Of a stretch of 64,000 nucleotides of DNA, positions 4,456 to 63,966 are shown one piece after another. Position numbers and translations under genes: made by a program. The stretch lies in contig OX352774.1 in NCBI GenBank assembly GCA_947095535.1, forward strand, positions 169,382,200 through 169,446,199, written 5' to 3'. Every line of letters starts with the position of its first letter. The first letter of the stretch is position 1. The notes below the pieces were generated by a model, which was given only the letters and a program-made list of their open reading frames with translations, made no database searches and had not been told where the DNA came from. The stretch comes from Poecilobothrus nobilitatus (taxonomy: Eukaryota > Arthropoda > Insecta > Diptera > Dolichopodidae).

Positions 4456-5587
4456 TAGATGTCCATATTTTCCAAAAGACAATACAAACTTTCCAGAATT
4501 GTGACTTGTACCAAAATTTGAATTTTTTTTAGAATTTTATATAAAAAGAAAAGCGATCACTATATAATTAAGAAAAGCCTACACCTGTAAAAATATAAAG
4601 TTGAAACCTTAATTTTTGCCTTTTATTTTAAAAAAAATTGTATAGGTGCTTAAGTTATAGGTGTCTAAAAATAGCAAAATATCAATTTTTAAGGCCTAAT
4701 AGTTCTTAAACTCGGGGTGGTCCAAAAAATAATTTCTGAGATAACATAAAATAATTTTAAAAGATTTTTAGACTCTAACTAAGAGTCGGCACGCACGTTA
4801 ATAAGAAGAAAAATCTTGGAAAATCTTATCTTCACATAACAGTAAATTTAAATACTAAATTACAAAACATTGCATAATTTTGATACCGTTTTATAAAGGT
4901 AAGAAAAGTTCCGGTCTTCTAGCGTTTCAGATTGTAAAACTACAACGCAGAATCTGAGATACATACATTTGAAGATGAAAATAGGACTTTTTATAGATAT
5001 TTTGAACGGCTGTAACTCCGTAGCCCTATACAACTAAGAAAAACCATTAACACTACGCAAACGGATGCTACTAGGGCTTTAAGTTTACGCCTTTTAAGGC
5101 TTTATATCTCACAGAAGAAAATTTTATACAGACACCTGTACTAAAAATAGCAAATGTTCAATTCCCTTAAACAGTGGCAAAAAAACTTTTATGAGGAGAC
5201 TTATACTAATTCTAAAAGTTCTTTCTTTTCTCTAAATTTCAAGTTCCTATCTAAAAGGGCGCGAATGAAATACTAAATTTAAAAAAACATGTTCAATTTC
5301 GGTTTTGATTTATAAAAGTAGAAAAAAGTCCCGTCGAATGATGTTTTTAAATTAAAAAAATGTTAAGCAGAACTTGAGATATATACATTTAAAATAGGGC
5401 TTTTTCAAAGTTTGAGAGGCTATAGCTCTGTAGTGGATGGGGTTACAACAAAAAGTTGTTCTACAAAATTAATTTTTTTATAAGACCTACCAACTTTCAT
5501 TGCTCTCAGTTTTGTAAACAGATACGGACGGATGGACAGAGTGAAACTAATAGGCATACTTATTCAAAAAATTTTTGAAAATGTGCT
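4456..5587 (-). repeat. Dispersed repeat copy, AGCACATTTTC-ended family
   Basis: This is a degenerate reverse-oriented copy of the repeat also present at 30055-30838 (minus) and 43741-44534 (plus). The right edge carries the family terminus (GAAAATGTGCT near 5577-5587), preceded by the diagnostic GAGTGAAACTAATA box and a GGACGGATGGACAG tract. The interior shares the wording around AGCTCTGTAGTGGATGGGG and TTATACTAATTCTAAAAG with the other copies. The left terminus is eroded (CATATTTTCCAAAAG near 4466), so that edge is approximate. No ORF of note. It is longer than the other copies, so it probably contains extra sequence. Confidence 0.6.
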
Positions 5588-9784: not shown

Positions 9785-10620
9785 AAATGGGCGAAATCGG
9801 ACCATGCGTTCGAGTACCTCCCATACAACTTCCAAAACCTAATACGCATATTTTCGAAATTAATAAAGATAGAAACTTAAAATTTTGTACGAGGGTGTGT
9901 TTTTCTGAATCCCTGATATCCCCAAAATTTGACATGAAGTGGAGTGGTTGTTCGGGTATCTTCTATACAACTCCCAAAACCGAACATGTATATCTTCGAA
10001 ATTAATAAAGACAGAAACTTCAAATTTGGTACTAGGGTGTTGTTTCCTGAATCCCTGATTTGTCCAAAATTTGAGATGAATTGGTGGAGCTGTTCGGGTA
10101 CCTCCAATACAACTCCCAAAACCGAACATGCATATCTTCGAAATTAATAAAGATAGGAACTTCAAATTTGATAGGAGGGTGCTGTTTCCTAAATCCCTGA
10201 TTTGTCTAAAATTTGAGAGGAATTGGAGTGGTCGTTCGGGTACTTCCCATACAACTCCCAAAACCGAACAAGCATATCTTCGAAATTAATAAAGACAGAA
10301 ACTTCAAATTTGGTACTAGGGTGTTGTTTCCTGAATCCCTGATTTGTCCAAAATTTGAGATGAATTAGAATGGTTGTTCGGGTATCTGCCACACAACTCC
10401 TAAGACCAAACAAGCATATCTTCGAAATTAATAAATATATAAACTTGAAATTTGATATAATATATGTTCTACCCTGTTGATGTCTCTAAAATTTAAGATG
10501 AATTGGGGTGGTGGTCCGCGTGCCTTCACACACATCCCAAAACCTAACAATCATATTTTCGAATTTAATAAAGATAGAAACCTGAAATTTTGTACAAAGG
10601 TTGTAACAGCATTTATTTTG
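9785..10620 (+). repeat. 142-bp tandem repeat array, about six units
   Basis: The anchor word TTCGAAATTAATAAAG recurs with starts at 9853, 9995, 10137, 10279 and 10421: four successive exact 142-bp steps. A sixth, diverged copy starts at 10558 (137 bp on). Each unit contains a GTTCGGGTA box, CATACAACTCCCAAAACCG and an AACTTCAAATTTGGTA box. The outer units are the most diverged and the central ones the most alike, as expected from unequal exchange. Overlapping ORFs on both strands arise from the repeat. Because 142 is not a multiple of three the reading frame changes every unit, so protein coding is unlikely. Confidence 0.85.
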
Positions 10621-18371: not shown

Positions 18372-20330
18372 ATTAATTTTTCTATGTATTATCGGGGTTT
18401 TAGAACAAAAACTAAAACCCTTTTTTAAAACTCAACTATTTTTAACTTTGACTGCGTCATTCTTACTGAAACATGGTTAAGTCCTTCTATTAACAATTTA
18501 GAATTATTTGAAAATTCTTACAGTGTCTACAGAAAAGATAGATACTCTTCAATATCACCTATTGATGGCAATCAAATAACTCCAAAAGGTGGAGGTGTTG
18601 TTATTGCGGTTAAAAGTAATTTGAATTCAAATTCAGTTTCTATTTTAGACTGTGATCAGCTTGAAATTTTATGTGTTAAAGTTGAATTCAGCAAAAAAAA
18701 GTTTATATACTGTTAGTTGTTTTATTCCTCCTAATTGCAACATTGAAATTTACAACCAATATAATAATACTAGGTATTAACTTTATAAATGAAAAATTAA
18801 GTGATTAAGGTGAAATTATAATTTTTGGTGATTTTAATCTCTCAAAGTTAAGATGGTATAAACATGACCGGGAGTTATTTATGATTCCTAAAAGTATTTC
18901 TAGTGGATTAGGAAGCTCATTTATTGATAATATCAATATGTATAATTTACAACAAATTTCTACTATACCTAATTTTCAAGGTAAACAGCTTGACCTAATC
19001 TTCACTTCAACTTGGAACAACTTATTAAATTTTCGCTATCCTTTTTCTCTTGTAAATATAGATGTTTTCCTTCCTCTCTTAAGCTATTCTTATTGTGTTA
19101 ACTTACCACATTATGCTTTAGGGGAAAATGTGTACTAATTTAATTTTAAAAAAGCCAATAATGATGCTATAAATGAGTTTCTTAATCAACTCAGTTTTAT
19201 GAAATCATTTTTAGTAGTTATAGACAATTTATTCCTAGGATCAGACAGAGATCTTTGAATTCTTGTCATCCTTGGAAGCAAGGAATTAAACTTGTCGTCC
19301 TTGGGAGGAAGTCGGTGTTAATACAATATAAATCTAAAAATGGTATTGATTACAACAATTTCTTAGCATTATTTAATGAATTTAAAAATTTATCTGATGA
19401 GTTTTATCAAATATATATACGTAATATATCTCTAAAGCTTACGCCAAAACCAAAAGAATTTTGGAAGTTTGTGAATATGAAACATAAATATGATGAATAC
19501 CCAACCTTCATGAATTACAATAGAAGTACAAGTAACGATACTGCAGTGATCAATGAATATTTTCGTCATTTTTTTTCATTAGCCTACTCTAATTCCAGTT
19601 TTTGTGCGGATATAAAAAATTTTAATCATATAAATAACCATTCCGAAATTTTTTTGAACTTGCAGACAACAAGTAATCAAATTATTTAATATTTAGAGAA
19701 ACTTAATATGAACTATTCTCCTGGACCCGATGGTATTCCAGAGAGTATTTTAAAAAAATGTTCAAATTCTTTTGCACTACTATTATCTATTCTTTTTAAT
19801 ACTTCCTTAGTGTAGTGTATTTTTCCAGATATTTGGAAGAAAAAATTGATTAGACCTATTTTTAAGAAAGATAAAAAAAATTTTGTAAATAAGTATCATC
19901 CGATTGCTAAATTCCTAAAATTCTTGAATCACTGAATTTTGATGTTAGAACAATTATTTCTGAAACTCAGCATGGCTTTGTAAAACACAAATATACTACA
20001 ACCAACCTAGTAGCATTAACATCTGTCTTTGTAAATAATATGTGTTTTCAAACTGATCGTGTTTTCAAACTGATGTTATCTATACTGTCTTTAACAAAGC
20101 CTTTGATATTTTACCCCATAGTGTCATTCTTCTAAAATTTAAGAAATATGGTTTTCCTGACAACTTAATTACTAAATGGATTGGTTCTTATCTCAAAGAT
20201 AGAAACTACAGCGTAGTGTTTAGGTCTTCCGTTTCCAAGGCGAAGTAAATTGTAAATTGTAACTTCATTTTAATATTAAGAAATTTATTGTAAAATTGTT
20301 TGAGTTAAACAAATAAACAAATATAAACTC
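18372..20330 (+). pseudogene. Broken non-LTR retrotransposon: APE endonuclease plus truncated reverse transcriptase
   Basis: The endonuclease starts near 18372 (FSMYYRGFRTKT) and, after a frameshift, gives ILTETWL, SYSVYRKDR and GGGVVIAVK (18441-18713). After further breaks GEIIIFGDFNLS follows from 18809, then the LDLIFTS segment near 18990, the order of motifs in the APE-type LINE endonuclease. A linker (19255-19689) has KEFWKF and AVINEYFRHFF, typical of the region before the RT. RT block one reads NYSPGPDGIPESILKKC near 19700, then W-KKKLIRPIFKK and QHGFVKHKYTTTNL. The translation ends around FRSSVSKA (about 20240) and jumps to a TAAATTGTAAATTGTAAC tail with an AAATAAAC-rich end. The catalytic (F/Y)ADD box, the rest of the RT and any RNase H are therefore missing by internal deletion. 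Several stops confirm that it is dead. The clade is probably in the Jockey/CR1 assemblage. Confidence 0.8.
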
Positions 20331-22428: not shown

Positions 22429-22437
22429 ACCTATTAT
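22429..22437 (+). repeat. Left 9-bp target-site duplication
   Basis: ACCTATTAT directly abuts the left terminus of the RING-carrying element and is repeated exactly at 24212-24220, directly after its right terminus. Confidence 0.85.
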
Positions 22438-22660
22438 GGTGAGGTGTAATAATAACATAAGAAATAAAGCCATAAGGCCGTATTTCCCATTTAAAATTAA
22501 ATAAAACTTTAAAACCTTATTTCCATTTTGAAATGAAAATAAAGCCATTAATCAAAAGGAAATAAAACATTATGGCTTATGGCTTTATTTCTACTTCAAA
22601 ATGGAAATAAAACCTTATGGCTTTATTTTTAAAAGGAAAATAAAACCATAATGTATGACA
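22438..22660 (+). repeat. Left terminal inverted repeat and subterminal iterons
   Basis: The first roughly 100 bp match the right TIR. The following bases contain repeated, partly palindromic words such as AAATAAAGCCATAAGG and TTATGGCTTTATTTC. Such clustered subterminal motifs are where transposases usually bind; that role is inference here. Confidence 0.7.
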
Positions 22661-22784
22661 TACATAACAACATGTGGTTAGGTATTAAATAAACTGTAAT
22701 TTTTCTTCAAAAGTGAATTAATCACTTTAAAATACTTTTAGTTATTCAATAAACCAGATTTTTTTTATAACTAGACTAAAATTA

Positions 22785-23452
22785 TTAGCTCAGAGTATAT
22801 TCGTACGTTGCATATAATTTTTCAACGATATGAATTAAATTAAAATGTATTAAGTCAGAACAAAAATGAACCACTTTGTAGAATTTCTGAAAACGAAAAT
22901 ATATTCCCCTTTTCCAGTAGGTTTAACAACACATTTTATGCGCATAGTGGCTGTTGGAAACAAAAAGATAGATATCTCCTTTGTTCAGAATTTTTAATTT
23001 TTATTTGCCGAGATTGAAGGAAGGACGCTTCGCGACACCAAAAACGCATGGAAGGATGCTCTGGCCGAAAATTATTGTCAATTTTATTAAAGTAGAACCG
23101 AACGGTGTTCTAAATTTTCTGGAAAAGAGGAATATGTTTCCTTTTTCCAGAAAGTTTACCAAAAATTTTGTACAGTTTAGCAAAACCTCTGAAAAAAAAA
23201 TGTATGCCTTTTTTCCAGAAACTTTAACAAAATCTTGATTATGTAAAGATTTGTCAGAAAAATTAAATATATAAAATAAGTACAAAATGTACTTATATAA
23301 ACTAAGTAGAAAAATAATAAAATAAGTACGAAAAAAAATGTCTGAAATTTTTCAGTTCATTTTATTTTTCTGACTTAATTCATTGTAACATAATTCATGG
23401 CGCCGAAAAATTATATGTAAGAGTAAAATCGTACGATAAATTCTCAGCTAAA
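22785..23452. repeat. Nested inverted-repeat element inside the RING-carrying transposon
   Basis: The left arm (about 22785-22876: TTAGCTCAGAG, CATATAATTTTTC, ATTAAGTCAGAA, AAAAATGAAC) and the right arm (about 23355-23452) are imperfect reverse complements over some 80-95 bp. The right arm has a 10-bp insertion relative to the left. Between them are three related segments of the form CTG(G)AAAA...TTTTCCAG (near 22888, 23117 and 23192), themselves hairpin-like. The ORFs at 22981-23238 (plus) and 23001-23285 (minus) are overlapping readings of this palindromic DNA and are not called as genes. It may be a MITE that landed in the larger element, or an integral foldback of it. Confidence 0.6.
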
Positions 23453-23543
23453 AATTAAATAAAACTACGATGCTCTCTCAATCTTTTTATGCATCAAATA
23501 ATTTTAATTATGTTTTATCATTTATCGAATAAAATAAACATTA

Positions 23544-23915
23544 ATGGACTTTTTAAATCAGTTAACAAATTGGCAAAATAAAATAATTAATTTTGATACT
23601 ACTGTTAAAAAAGTAGAAAATGAACAAGATGAACAAGAAACTAACGACGGATTCGATTCAAATGATGATAGCAACATTAATGATACTAATTCGCAACAAT
23701 CTCAAACTCAATTACTTTGTATCATTTGTTATAAGAAACCTAGAAAACTGCTATTATTACCATGTAATAATTTTAAGTTCTGTACTGGCTGTTTTACTGT
23801 GCATTCTGAAAATTCATTGGGAAATAATAATTTAAATATATTATACCCACTTTGTAGGCAAATTGTAAAAAATTATACAAAAATTATGTATAAATGTTCA
23901 CAAAAAAACATTTAA
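23544..23915 (+). CDS. RING-finger-like small protein (degenerate C3HC4), transposon cargo
   Basis: The 123-residue ORF has an acidic, Asn/Asp/Gln-rich N-terminal half (residues 24-57) and a C-terminal RING-like domain (59-104). The ligand series is C59-x2-C62, C74, position 76, C80-x2-C83, then position 101 and C104 in a YPLCRQI context. Canonical RINGs have His at the position of N76 and Cys at Y101 (the CPxCR box), so two of eight zinc ligands are replaced. The Tyr is one base change from Cys. The pattern LCIICYKKPRKLLLLPC and the terminal CR box resemble IAP/MUL1-type E3 ligase RINGs. The loop before the last pair is long (about 17 residues after C83). There is no BIR domain. If functional it might bind an E2 or a RING partner in ubiquitin transfer, but loss of ligands argues for decay or a non-catalytic role. 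It starts at the first ATG. No intron is apparent, and it is the sole cargo gene of the flanking TIR element. Confidence 0.65.
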   Translation: MDFLNQLTNWQNKIINFDTTVKKVENEQDEQETNDGFDSNDDSNINDTNSQQSQTQLLCIICYKKPRKLLLLPCNNFKFCTGCFTVHSENSLGNNNLNILYPLCRQIVKNYTKIMYKCSQKNI

Positions 23916-24059
23916 GAAGAATTATTTTAGTTTTGTATAATTTTATTATTGAATAATAATTAATTTATATGTTTAAATTTCAATTAAAAGGATAATTTTT
24001 TTATGATATGTGTTTTAATTTTCTTTTCAAAGTTGAATGGTTTTTGGCATAATTTTCCA

Positions 24060-24211
24060 TTTAAAAGGAAATAAAATCATAAGGCCTTATTTCCATTTTG
24101 TATGGTAATAAAACATTTCAAAATGGTAATAAAACCTTATGGCTTTATTTCCTTTTAAATAGGAAATAAGGTATTATGGCTTTATTTTCTATGGTGTTAT
24201 TGCACCCCACC
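24060..24211 (-). repeat. Right terminal inverted repeat and subterminal iterons
   Basis: The reverse complement begins GGTGGGGTGCAATAACACCA and continues ATAGAAAATAAAGCCATAA, pairing with the left end. Iterated words ATAAAACCTTATGGCTTTAT and ATAAGGTATTATGGCTTTAT follow inward. Confidence 0.75.
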
Positions 24212-24220
24212 ACCTATTAT
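24212..24220 (+). repeat. Right 9-bp target-site duplication
   Basis: ACCTATTAT is an exact copy of 22429-22437 and lies immediately outside the right CACCCCACC terminus. Confidence 0.85.
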
Positions 24221-43740: not shown

Positions 43741-44534
43741 AGCACATTTTCAAAACATTTTGAAAAAATGTGCTTATTAGTTTCACTCTGTCCGTCTGCC
43801 TGTTCGTCCGTCCGTTTGTCTAAGTGTTTACAAAACTTCTACACCGTTTCAAATAGAACAATGAAATATTAACTACGGATAGGCATTGCCAAAAAACTAA
43901 TTTTGTGGAACAATTTTTTTCTCTAGCCCCAACCGTTACGGAGCTACAGCCCTACAAAGTTCAAAAAAGCCCTATTTTTAAATTGTTATAACATAGGTCC
44001 TATAAGGCATATTTTCAATCTCGAAACGCCCCCAATAGCTGGTTTTATAAACTTTATAAATGTATATAAAATAAATATGTGGCTTTTCTGTGTGGTATTT
44101 TAATATACCGTTATGTGAAACACAATTTTTACAAAAATTTGGACCCCTTCTATCTTTCAAATGGTGTAACTTAGAAGTTTGTAATTTTGGGAGCAGTTAG
44201 ATCTTTGTAAATTAGTATGAGTCATTTCAGGAAATATTTATGTGTCGTTCCCCGTTTAACAGCTGTAAGGGGTCAAAAGCTGAAAATTCTCAATTTTTAA
44301 ACACTTGTAACATTGGCACCTGTCCAAATGTTTTTGAAGTATTATACAAAAATTAAAGCTCCTTCATTCTATTTTTGTTTGTGTTAATAATTTTTCTTAA
44401 TAATATAGGGTTACCTTATAGTTGATGAAAGTGCGATTTGATTTTTCTCTTTTCTTACCAAAAAAAAACTTTCAATATATCTACTATTTAATCTAGGCTT
44501 ATTATGGAACATTTTTTGATTTTGAAAATGTGCT
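43741..44534 (+). mobile_element. 794-bp element with 15-bp terminal inverted repeats
   Basis: AGCACATTTTCAAAA (43741-43755) is matched perfectly by TTTTGAAAATGTGCT (44520-44534). The 5' end also folds back on itself (AGCACATTTT with AAAATGTGCT at 43765-43774). It contains the GTCCGTCTGCCTGTTCGTCC tract, GAGCTACAGCCCTACAAAG, CCGTTATGTGAAACACAA and GTAAGGGGTCAAAAGCTG. Both flanks are T-runs, so a target-site duplication cannot be told from poly-T. It has no ORF beyond a 60-codon antisense frame that I regard as incidental. Copies in reverse orientation lie at 4456-5587 and 30055-30838. The interior is shared with 58594-59545 and 63075-63966, whose ends differ. Confidence 0.7.
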
Positions 44535-58593: not shown

Positions 58594-59545
58594 TATACCC
58601 GTACGATAGGATCGGGTATAATAAAATTACTCCTCCGTTTGTAACACCTCGAAATAAGCGAGCTAGATATACCTTCAAAGGTATGGATCGGATCAGAAAA
58701 AAATTCTAAGACTTTTGAGCCATGTCCGTCCGTCCGTCCGTCCGTCCGTCAGCACGCTAACTCAAAAACTAAGAAAGCTAGAATCTTGAAATTTACACAA
58801 AATATTTTGGGAGTAATTTGTAGGCTCCCTATTTTTTTTGGTTGAGTTTGGACCAAGCCTTAGGGTAGGTCTCGAACACCTAACTTTTAGATCCTCACAT
58901 TTTTTTTGCAATAGAGCTATGAAATTTTAACTACTGATAGATCTCACAAAAATATTAATTTTATTTTGAATAACTTTTTTTTGTAGCCCCACCCGTTACC
59001 GAGCTACAGCTCCCCAAAGGTTCAAAAAAGCTCTATATTTAAATTGTTATAGCACAAGTTGTATAAAATATATCTTCATTTTGAAAACGCCAAACGATTA
59101 CTACTTTCATTAGCTTTAAAAGTATATATACAATAAATATATAATTTTGGCATACGGTGTCTTAATTTACCGTTATGCGAAACCCAAATTTTGCAAAATT
59201 CTTTAACCCTTCCATCTTCTAAACGGTTAAAGTTGGAAACTTGAAATTTTGACAGAAGTTAGATCTTTGAAAATTAGTATGAGTCATTTCAGAAATTTTT
59301 TTTGTATAACCCCCCATTTAGGAGCTGTAAGGGGTCAAAAACTGAAAATTTCCTATTTTGAAACACCTGTAACTTGAACACTTGTTAAAATTTTTTTGAA
59401 GTAATACACAAAAATTAAAGCTCCAACATTATGCTTTTATTTCTGTTAACAACTTTTTTTAATAATATAGGGTTACTTTATAATTGACGAAAGTGTTACT
59501 TGATTTTTTCAAATTTTCTAACAAATTTCTTTAACGAATTTTTTC
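58594..59545 (+). repeat. TATACCCG-ended dispersed repeat, plus-strand copy
   Basis: TATACCCG (58594-58601) and CGGGTATA (58613-58620) form a terminal hairpin. GCGAGCTAGATATACC, GGATCGGATCAG, several GTCC repeats (58726-58749), CAGCACGCTAACTCAAAAAC and CGTTACCGAGCTACAGCTCC follow. A matching reverse copy lies at 63075-63966. From about 58940 the interior matches the AGCACATTTTC-ended element at 43741, although the first 350 bp differ. Non-coding. Confidence 0.7.
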
Positions 59546-62945: not shown

Positions 62946-63074
62946 TTTAAAAATAATGAAAAATTAAAAAATAATACTACAAGCAAAGTGATACTATATT
63001 GTATATTGAATTCAATAAGCCGTTCGTCCAGGTATTTAAGAATTAGTTAAAAACTTGCAAAATATTCGTTGAAG

Positions 63075-63966
63075 AAATTTTAAAAAAATTAAGGCACACT
63101 TTCGTCAATTTTAAGGTAACCCTGTATTATTAAGAAAAGTTGTTAAAAGAAATAAAAATATAATATTGGAGCTTTCATTTTTGTATATTACTTCAAAAAA
63201 ATTTGGACAGGTGTTTAAAAATAAGGAATTTTTAGTTTTTGACCCCATACAGCTCCGAAACGGGGGGCGATACAAAAATATTTTCTGTAATGACTCATAC
63301 TTATTTTATTTAACTTCTATCAAAATTTCAAGTTTCTAACTTAAACTATTTGCAAGATAGAAGGAGTCAAGAATTTTGCAAATTTTGAGTTTTGCATAAC
63401 GGTAAATTAGGACACCGTATGGCTCAAGTATATATTTATTGTTTATATATTTTTAAAGCTAATAAAATCAGTAAACGTTTAGCGTTTTCAAATTGAAGAT
63501 ACACCTTATATAACTTGTGTTATAACAATTTAAATATAGAGCTTTTTCGAACTTTGGGGGTGTAGCTCCCTAACGGGTGGGGCAATAGAAAAAAGTTGTT
63601 CTATAAAATTAATATTTTTATGATATATATCAGCAGTTAAAATTTCATGGCTCTATTTCAAAAAAAATGTGGGGATCTAAAACTTAGTTGTTCGAGAGCT
63701 ACCCGAAGTTTTGGTCGGATCTCAACCAAAAAAAATGGGGAGCCTACAAATTGATATAAGAATATTTTGTGTTAATTTCAAGACTCTAGCTTTCTTAGTT
63801 TTTCAATTAGCGTGCTGACGGACGGATGGACGGACAAAGCTTAATCGACTCAGAATTTGATTCTGATCCGATTCATATCTTTGAAGGTTTATCTAGCTAG
63901 CTTATTTCGAGATGTTACAAACGAAGGAGCAATGCTAATGTACCCGATCCTTATCGTACGGGTATA
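63075..63966 (-). repeat. TATACCCG-ended dispersed repeat, minus-strand copy
   Basis: The right end TACCCGATCC...CGTACGGGTATA (63941-63966) is the reverse complement of 58594-58620. Inward come CAGCACGCTAATTG (reverse), the GGACGGATGGACGGAC tract (63821-63836), GGTGTAGCTCCCTAACGGG and TTTTGACCCCATACAGCTC, each the mirror of the plus-strand copy. The left edge near ACACTTTCGTCAATTTTAAG mirrors 59490-59510. With 58594-59545 it forms a large inverted pair around the LINE debris. Confidence 0.75.

What the first reader, a model, noticed from the sequence alone, without database searches (positions are those of the whole stretch)
22429..24220. TIR transposon carrying a RING-finger-like gene with an exact 9-bp target-site duplication
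The element has inverted ends (GGTGAGGTGTAAT / GGTGGGGTGCAAT), subterminal iterons, and an exact ACCTATTAT duplication on both sides. It has no transposase, and its one credible gene encodes a RING-like protein. Long TIRs with a 9-bp TSD point to Mutator-like elements, and gene-carrying versions (Pack-MULEs) are best known from plants. An animal example with a RING cargo would be of real interest. The seen facts are the ends, the TSD and the ORF; the superfamily is inference.
Basis: partly seen in the sequence, partly recalled or inferred. Interest (0 to 1): 0.85.

Follow-up and report, generated by a model that had tools for sequence, protein, structure and literature searches.

The report
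Decayed Mutator-like transposon with RING remnant
This is a non-autonomous "jumping gene" whose supposed captured host gene is really the leftover tail end of its own family's transposase, an enzyme that in this family carries a RING finger (a domain typical of ubiquitin ligases) at its end.

Summary
In detail: 22438-24211 (1774 bp) has ~99-bp terminal inverted repeats (TIRs), subterminal repeats and an exact 9-bp target-site duplication (TSD).

The "captured RING gene" reading does not. The genome gives at least 132 matches to the RING protein; at least 77 have Mutator-like (MULE) transposase just upstream on the same strand, against 0.06 by random placement. Two relatives of about 2.7 kb with similar ends and exact 9-bp TSDs (L012, L014) encode MULE transposase pieces followed by the RING. 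Predicted public protein P0017 has MULE domain (5.6e-12) and C-terminal RING (2.1e-10) in one 482-aa ORF. The window ORF aligns to the end of such a transposase (40% over 124 aa, 9e-23), starts inside it and has lost two of eight zinc ligands.

So this is an internally deleted MULE, not a Pack-MULE. Of 10 loci with paired ends, 8 show TSDs of exactly 9 bp. The closest published thing is the Ghost MULE clade, with a RING ORF but no TIR or TSD identified. The interest lies in the RING-ended transposase, a parallel to RAG1; its RING profile best matches IAP ubiquitin ligases.

The parts
22429..22437 (.). left target-site duplication ACCTATTAT
22438..22535 (+). left terminal inverted repeat (starts GGTGAGGTGTAAT)
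   Evidence: arm 22437-22535, 80% complementary to the right arm
22462..22650 (+). left subterminal repeats (AAATAAAGCCATAAGG-type iterons in both orientations)
22962..23300 (+). internal stretch without recognised coding relics, shared at 69% with locus L009, which has one family-type end and gave no RING or transposase match; includes a short repeat at 23100-23168 listed at 8 other places
23508..23543 (+). stop-interrupted continuation of the alignment to transposases just upstream of the ORF's ATG
   Evidence: (place C8:169405707-169406090, one TAA inside)
23544..23915 (+). ORF of 123 aa with stop codon: C-terminal remnant of a RING-bearing MULE transposase, two zinc ligands lost (His to Asn, Cys to Tyr)
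24058..24169 (+). right subterminal repeats
24114..24211 (-). right terminal inverted repeat (starts GGTGGGGTGCAAT read inward)
24212..24220 (.). right target-site duplication ACCTATTAT

Best explanation
The element is a non-autonomous, internally deleted Mutator-like (MULE) DNA transposon. Its ancestor was an element of roughly 2.7 kb encoding one transposase: a MULE DDE catalytic core and a C-terminal RING finger, perhaps with an N-terminal FLYWCH-like zinc finger (weak evidence). The window copy lost the N-terminus and catalytic core and kept the ends plus the last ~125 codons. Shown: the ends, the 9-bp duplications, relatives with similar ends that carry transposase sequence and RING together (L012 and L014 themselves have broken frames), and single ORFs elsewhere with both domains. 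Inferred: the element was moved in trans by a RING-bearing MULE transposase that binds the subterminal repeats, cuts at the GGTG ends and inserts with a 9-bp stagger. Inferred (about 0.5): in intact relatives the RING dimerises through its C-terminal tail as IAP-type RINGs do, and helps assemble the transposase on DNA or ubiquitinates it or host proteins. The window's own ORF most likely makes no working RING.
For: TIR and TSD anatomy. L012 (2749 bp, TSD TATTTTTGT) and L014 (2639 bp, TSD TGTTAATTT) have similar ends and carry transposase pieces followed by the RING; Pfam gives MULE 7.6e-10 and RING 1.6e-10 for L012. Of the 19 best non-self RING loci (L030-L048), 18 have the region at or just after the presumed catalytic Glu upstream on the same strand and 16 also the second-Asp region; L030 (the same place as L010) has neither. 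At least 77 of 132 RING matches have transposase upstream within 2.5 kb on the same strand, 2 on the opposite strand, random mean 0.055. L047 has the Glu region and RING in one 237-aa frame. P0017, 482 aa, has MULE 5.6e-12 and RING 2.1e-10 in one ORF; P0012 (358 aa) has RING 1.2e-11 and the end of the MULE domain (8.4e-4, below cut-off) plus the following transposase region. Window ORF against the L049 transposase C-terminus: 40% over 124 aa, 9e-23; the window's start Met aligns with an internal Asn; the alignment continues past a stop upstream of it. Terminus scan: TSD of exactly 9 bp in 8 of 10 loci with paired ends.
Against: No full-length second copy of this derivative was found (40 of 123 candidates scored), and the nearest relative (L010, 85% over the RING and right part) shows no transposase. 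The middle of the element (about 22650-23500) has no recognised origin. 55 of 132 RING matches showed no transposase upstream; the transposase searches were capped and at least one of the 55 (C1:28829255, L042) does have it, but how many of the others are true solo RINGs is not known. No convincing empty site was found. The ends of the window element and of L012 share a pattern, not close identity. The FLYWCH match is below cut-off (0.0071, L053); the N-terminal pieces of L012 and L014 and the whole of P0017 gave none.
Confidence: 0.93

Rival explanations
1. Pack-MULE: a non-autonomous MULE that captured a host RING gene.
For: RING ORF inside TIRs with a 9-bp TSD and no transposase domain left.
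Against: The same RING follows MULE transposase sequence in 18 of the 19 best non-self loci and lies in one ORF with it, and the window ORF keeps transposase-tail sequence ahead of the RING.
Confidence: 0.03
2. The short RING ORF is kept on purpose: a truncated transposase acting as a trans-dominant repressor or regulator, as the KP product does for the P element (recalled). L035 and L045 (1.74 kb) likewise lack the second-Asp region but keep the stretch just after the presumed Glu and the RING.
For: Three small derivatives in two subfamilies keep an open RING reading frame (window, L035, L045).
Against: The window copy lost two zinc ligands and L045 one. Other small derivatives (L016, L018, L021, L025) gave no transposase or RING match. 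Pairwise dN/dS in the RING within subfamilies scatters from 0.25 to 3.1 on few changes, and no pair with the window was measurable, so constraint is not shown.
Confidence: 0.1
3. A different superfamily (such as Merlin) with the RING near by chance, or the Foldback/NOF branch.
For: Subterminal repeats in the TIRs resemble Foldback-type ends.
Against: PF10551 MULE domain in relatives with similar ends, and TSDs of 9, not 8. Foldback/NOF belongs to the wider Mutator group (recalled), so that branch is a matter of naming within it and was not tested.
Confidence: 0.03

Closest known systems
Ghost MULE clade (Dupeyron et al. 2019, PMC6446971; abstract, passages and Table 1 in parts seen)
   Same: Arthropod MULE; the most complete Ghost element (Myzus cerasi) has a RING zinc-finger ORF of 420 bp beside a truncated transposase ORF.
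   Different: The paper found no complete arthropod Ghost element and no TIR or TSD for it, and reports the RING as a separate ORF (its Table 1 lists SWIM; a cnidarian subgroup has 177-bp TIRs). Here TIRs and exact 9-bp TSDs are seen and the RING is in one ORF with transposase sequence. No Ghost sequence was at hand to test kinship.
Tm1 of root-knot nematodes (PMC3169594, passages seen)
   Same: Mutator/Foldback-type element, composite TIRs, mostly 9-bp TSDs, transposase-coding copy of 2593 bp, MITE-like derivatives; transposase closest to aphid and mosquito proteins.
   Different: No word beginning with 'ring' occurs in the held text; the transposase is Phantom-like.
Spectre MULE clade (PMC6446971, passages seen)
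   Same: Aphid MULE with TIRs of about 75 bp.
   Different: 8-bp TSD and C2H2 finger; here 9 bp and RING.
RAG1 / Chapaev transposases (PMC4411706, passages seen)
   Same: DDE recombinase joined to a RING; the RAG1 RING is a ubiquitin ligase.
   Different: Different superfamily; the RING is on the N-terminal side (recalled for RAG1; the paper puts it after the Chapa domain in two Chapaev subgroups), here at the extreme C-terminus. [quoted passage not shown]
Pack-MULEs of plants
   Same: Non-autonomous MULE with an ORF between TIRs.
   Different: The ORF here is the transposase's own domain, not a captured host gene.

Membership tests
Mutator-like element (MULE) | TSD of 8-11 bp | tested here: met
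   9 bp exact in the window; exactly 9 in 8 of 10 loci with paired ends; the other two: L035 poly-A (6-11, ambiguous), L045 7 of 9
Mutator-like element (MULE) | MULE-type DDE transposase in the element or in relatives with the same kind of ends | tested here: met
   PF10551 in L012, 7.6e-10, with similar ends and a 9-bp TSD; not found in the window element itself
Mutator-like element (MULE) | long terminal inverted repeats | tested here: met
   99 nt at 80%; L012 140 nt at 84%
Pack-MULE | ORF derives from a host gene | tested here: not met
   ORF derives from the transposase C-terminus
Ghost clade | transposase falls in the Ghost clade of the DDE phylogeny | not testable with these tools
Ghost clade | RING zinc finger beside the transposase (the most complete published element) | tested here: met
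Spectre clade | 8-bp TSD | tested here: not met
   9-bp TSDs
Phantom MULE | FLYWCH zinc finger (present in part of the group) | tested here: inconclusive
   L053 N-terminal piece FLYWCH E 0.0071, below cut-off; none in the L012 and L014 pieces or in P0017
Foldback/NOF | NOF-type transposase | not tested
   no NOF sequence was compared
Active RING E3 ligase (the window ORF) | eight zinc ligands (C3HC4) | tested here: not met
   window has Asn and Tyr at two of eight positions. Of 24 relatives looked at, 16 keep all eight (one of them, L042, with stop codons inside), 3 have Asp for His, 3 lost one Cys, L038 two, L010 more

The most novel reading that the evidence does not exclude
A lineage of animal MULEs has a transposase that ends in a working IAP-type RING ubiquitin ligase: an independent marriage of a DDE recombinase with a ubiquitin ligase besides RAG1/Chapaev, with dimerisation through the RING tail built into transpososome assembly or turnover.
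Probability: 0.4. Interest if true: 0.65.

Novelty: new variant of a known kind. Interest (0 to 1): 0.4.

Why it matters
The window element itself is ordinary: one decayed, non-autonomous MULE. What it leads to is more useful. It supplies TIRs and 9-bp TSDs for RING-bearing MULEs, which the 2019 survey could not find for Ghost, and shows the RING as a C-terminal domain of the transposase. That makes a testable parallel to RAG1. It also warns that RING genes predicted in such genomes may be transposase tails.

Tried and rejected
Pack-MULE reading: rejected (see the rival explanations).

Empty-site search with joined flanks: the two self halves and three weak matches in AT-rich DNA (64, 59 and 56 bits). 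Two were fetched and aligned. The better one has gaps within the duplicated word. Control stretches of the window reached at most 48 bits, but they were 300 bases against 600 for the joined flanks, so the control is not matched. Judged inconclusive.

dN/dS of the RING: too few changes within subfamilies, near-saturated synonymous sites between them; not used.

IAP-likeness rests on the ten-sequence profile. Single sequences are less specific: L049 alone ranks MEX3C (1.7e-4), MGRN1 and TRIM30 first and cIAP1 at 0.035; the window ORF alone ranks TRIM2 first at 0.048.

AlphaFold model of P0017: mean pLDDT 44, not used, no fold search made. Protein search with the L047 ORF: no hit at 0.001 among 293 candidates. 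The genome search with PF10551 did not complete, so no count of all MULEs was made.

Literature: eight searches. I opened three papers (PMC6446971, PMC3169594, PMC4411706), passages only apart from one abstract and table parts; of these only PMC6446971 describes a RING with an arthropod MULE. Other listed papers were not opened, and the library holds open-licence papers only, so absence from print is not shown.

Full report
Observation. The sequence at 22438-24211 begins GGTGAGGTGTAAT and ends with the complement of GGTGGGGTGCAAT. The two arms are 99 nt and 80% complementary; short repeats of the type AAATAAAGCCATAAGG stand near both ends in both orientations. ACCTATTAT flanks the element on both sides and occurs nowhere else on the + strand of the window. 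Identical 9-mers at the same spacing occur at 4 of 62,208 position pairs, the element's own included, and in 202 of 2,000,000 random pairs. So the duplication is unlikely to be a chance effect of AT-rich DNA.

The family in its own genome. The window lies in an unnamed 944-Mb assembly of 84 contigs. A DNA search found no second full-length copy; the best other match is an 85% stretch of 377 query bases (RING and right flank) on C2 (58 matches listed, 40 of 123 candidates scored). A protein search with the 123-aa ORF gave 132 matches (150 of 290 candidates scored). Several lie in loci already found by their iterons. L012 (2749 bp) and L014 (2639 bp) are bounded by ends like the window's (GGYG...CCATA) and by exact 9-bp duplications TATTTTTGT and TGTTAATTT.

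Terminus scan. A matrix of 24-bp ends, trained on window, L009, L012, L013, L014, L035 and L045, was run over 44 sources (window and L009-L053 without L029 and L030). Ten had a pair of ends. Eight (window, L012, L014, L016, L018, L021, L025, L027) have a pair flanked by an identical word of exactly 9; five of these were not in the training set. L035 sits in poly-A (6-11 bp, ambiguous), L045 has 7 of 9. An outer pair and other pairings in L018 and internal pairs in L012, L014, L035 and L045 have no matching flanks.

What the RING is. In L012 and L014 the frames before the RING read as pieces of a MULE transposase: LIDGTF, CDFETGLRNG (followed in L012 by CWFHY) and RTTNAIEGFN carry the presumed catalytic positions (motifs recalled); these copies have broken frames. 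Pfam confirms MULE (7.6e-10) and RING (1.6e-10) in L012, and MULE 9.6e-9 with RING 1.7e-7 in L047. The 19 best-scoring non-self RING loci are L030-L048. In 18 of 19 the region at or just after the presumed Glu lies upstream on the same strand, in 16 of 19 also the second-Asp region; L030, tested as the larger L010, has neither. L038-L040 are repeats of one unit and L032 and L033 neighbouring copies. Ten of the 19 align through that region and the RING in one frame, L047 being the query itself and some having stops. These are the best-scoring loci and so favour well-kept copies.

Across all 132 RING matches at least 77 have transposase upstream on the same strand within 2.5 kb and 2 on the opposite strand; random placement gives a mean of 0.055 and at most 2 in 200 trials. 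I used all 150 rows and 106 of 150 rows, those that start in the Glu region. 55 of 132 had none; this is an upper bound, because those searches scored 150 of 516 and 150 of 449 candidates. Seen from the other side, 66 of 143 second-Asp places have a listed RING match downstream.

Independent proof of fusion. A public protein search with a transposase exon of L050 gave 13 hits among 123 candidates. One of them, P0012 (358 aa), reads from the second Asp through the Glu region to a C-terminal RING. A search with P0012 gave 8 hits, itself included, among them P0017, 482 aa, with MULE (residues 99-191, 5.6e-12) and RING (427-475, 2.1e-10) in one ORF. The RING is therefore a domain of the transposase.

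The window ORF as a remnant. Against the L049 transposase C-terminus it aligns at 40% over 124 aa (9e-23): TLMDFLNQLTNWQNKI against TLNDWLNQLTNRNNEI; the start Met sits at an internal Asn of the transposase. A genome search with L047 also matched window 23508-23891 across a stop codon. No Asp or Glu region was recognised elsewhere in the element. The window's ligands read CCCNCCYC. Of 24 relatives looked at, 20 were collected by a pattern that fixed some positions: 14 read CCCHCCCC, 3 have Asp for His, 3 lost one Cys. The four that the pattern missed were read afterwards: L042 (with stops inside) and L046 keep all eight, L038 lost two, L010 lost more. L010, the nearest relative, also has Asn at the His position but keeps the Cys that the window has lost. 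L031, L033, L036, L039 and L040, copies of loci already counted or so taken, were left out.

What the RING may do. A profile of ten RINGs, the window's included, finds among solved structures cIAP1 (2.5e-9), cIAP2 (1.1e-8), CGRRF1 (3.4e-7) and XIAP (6.4e-7) first, the IAP matches running to the end of the C-terminal tail. Single sequences are less specific: L049 alone ranks MEX3C first (1.7e-4) and cIAP1 at 0.035. In IAP-type RINGs this tail makes the dimer, and the Arg after the last Cys (20 of 20, 3 of 4) is the linchpin residue of active ligases (both recalled). A dimeric ligase at the end of the transposase is thus plausible but untested.

Against known families. The 2019 survey (PMC6446971) describes Ghost MULEs with a RING ORF beside a truncated transposase and neither TIR nor TSD in arthropods; Spectre with 8-bp TSD; Phantom with none, FLYWCH or SWIM; and one Phytophthora element (37_Pi) with a C3HC4 finger. 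The family here fits the RING feature of Ghost and adds ends and TSD, but kinship could not be tested. The 2015 RAG paper (PMC4411706) held that RING and Chapa occur in no transposable elements outside the group it treats; the present family, Ghost and 37_Pi are exceptions.

Verdict. The element is ordinary in itself; the RING-ended transposase behind it deserves a look.

Noticed in passing
window 58732-59519 and 63073-63835: Long inverted repeat arms (86-88%), by their look two copies of one retrotransposon-like repeat head to head, with GTCC-repeat ends; related pieces at 5388, 20385, 30597 and 43747-44489.
   Followed up: partly
window 9808-10595: Tandem array of a 142-bp unit, 5.6 copies, partly open in one frame on the - strand (9860-10285, 141 aa).
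   Followed up: no
window 19186-19689: ORF that by eye resembles a retrotransposon-like ORF in L052:719-1120.
   Followed up: no
window 23100-23168: A 68-bp stretch inside the element is listed at 8 other places in the genome at 81-86% identity, perhaps a nested small repeat.
   Followed up: no
L016:2333-3059, L018:2969-3592, L021:2285-3072, L025:2157-3097: MITE-like derivatives of 624-941 bp with the family's kind of ends and exact 9-bp TSDs; no transposase or RING match.
   Followed up: partly
L027:2941-5956: A 3016-bp element with family-type ends and an exact 9-bp TSD that holds only a relic of the transposase N-terminus and no ORF of 70 aa or more.
   Followed up: partly
P0003: A Bactrocera latifrons predicted protein is 48% identical to the L050 transposase exon, so relatives of this MULE reach flies, unless the record is contaminated.
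   Followed up: no
L047 and L053: Two transposase loci 94-97% identical in the catalytic exons, suggesting fairly recent activity of that subfamily.
   Followed up: no
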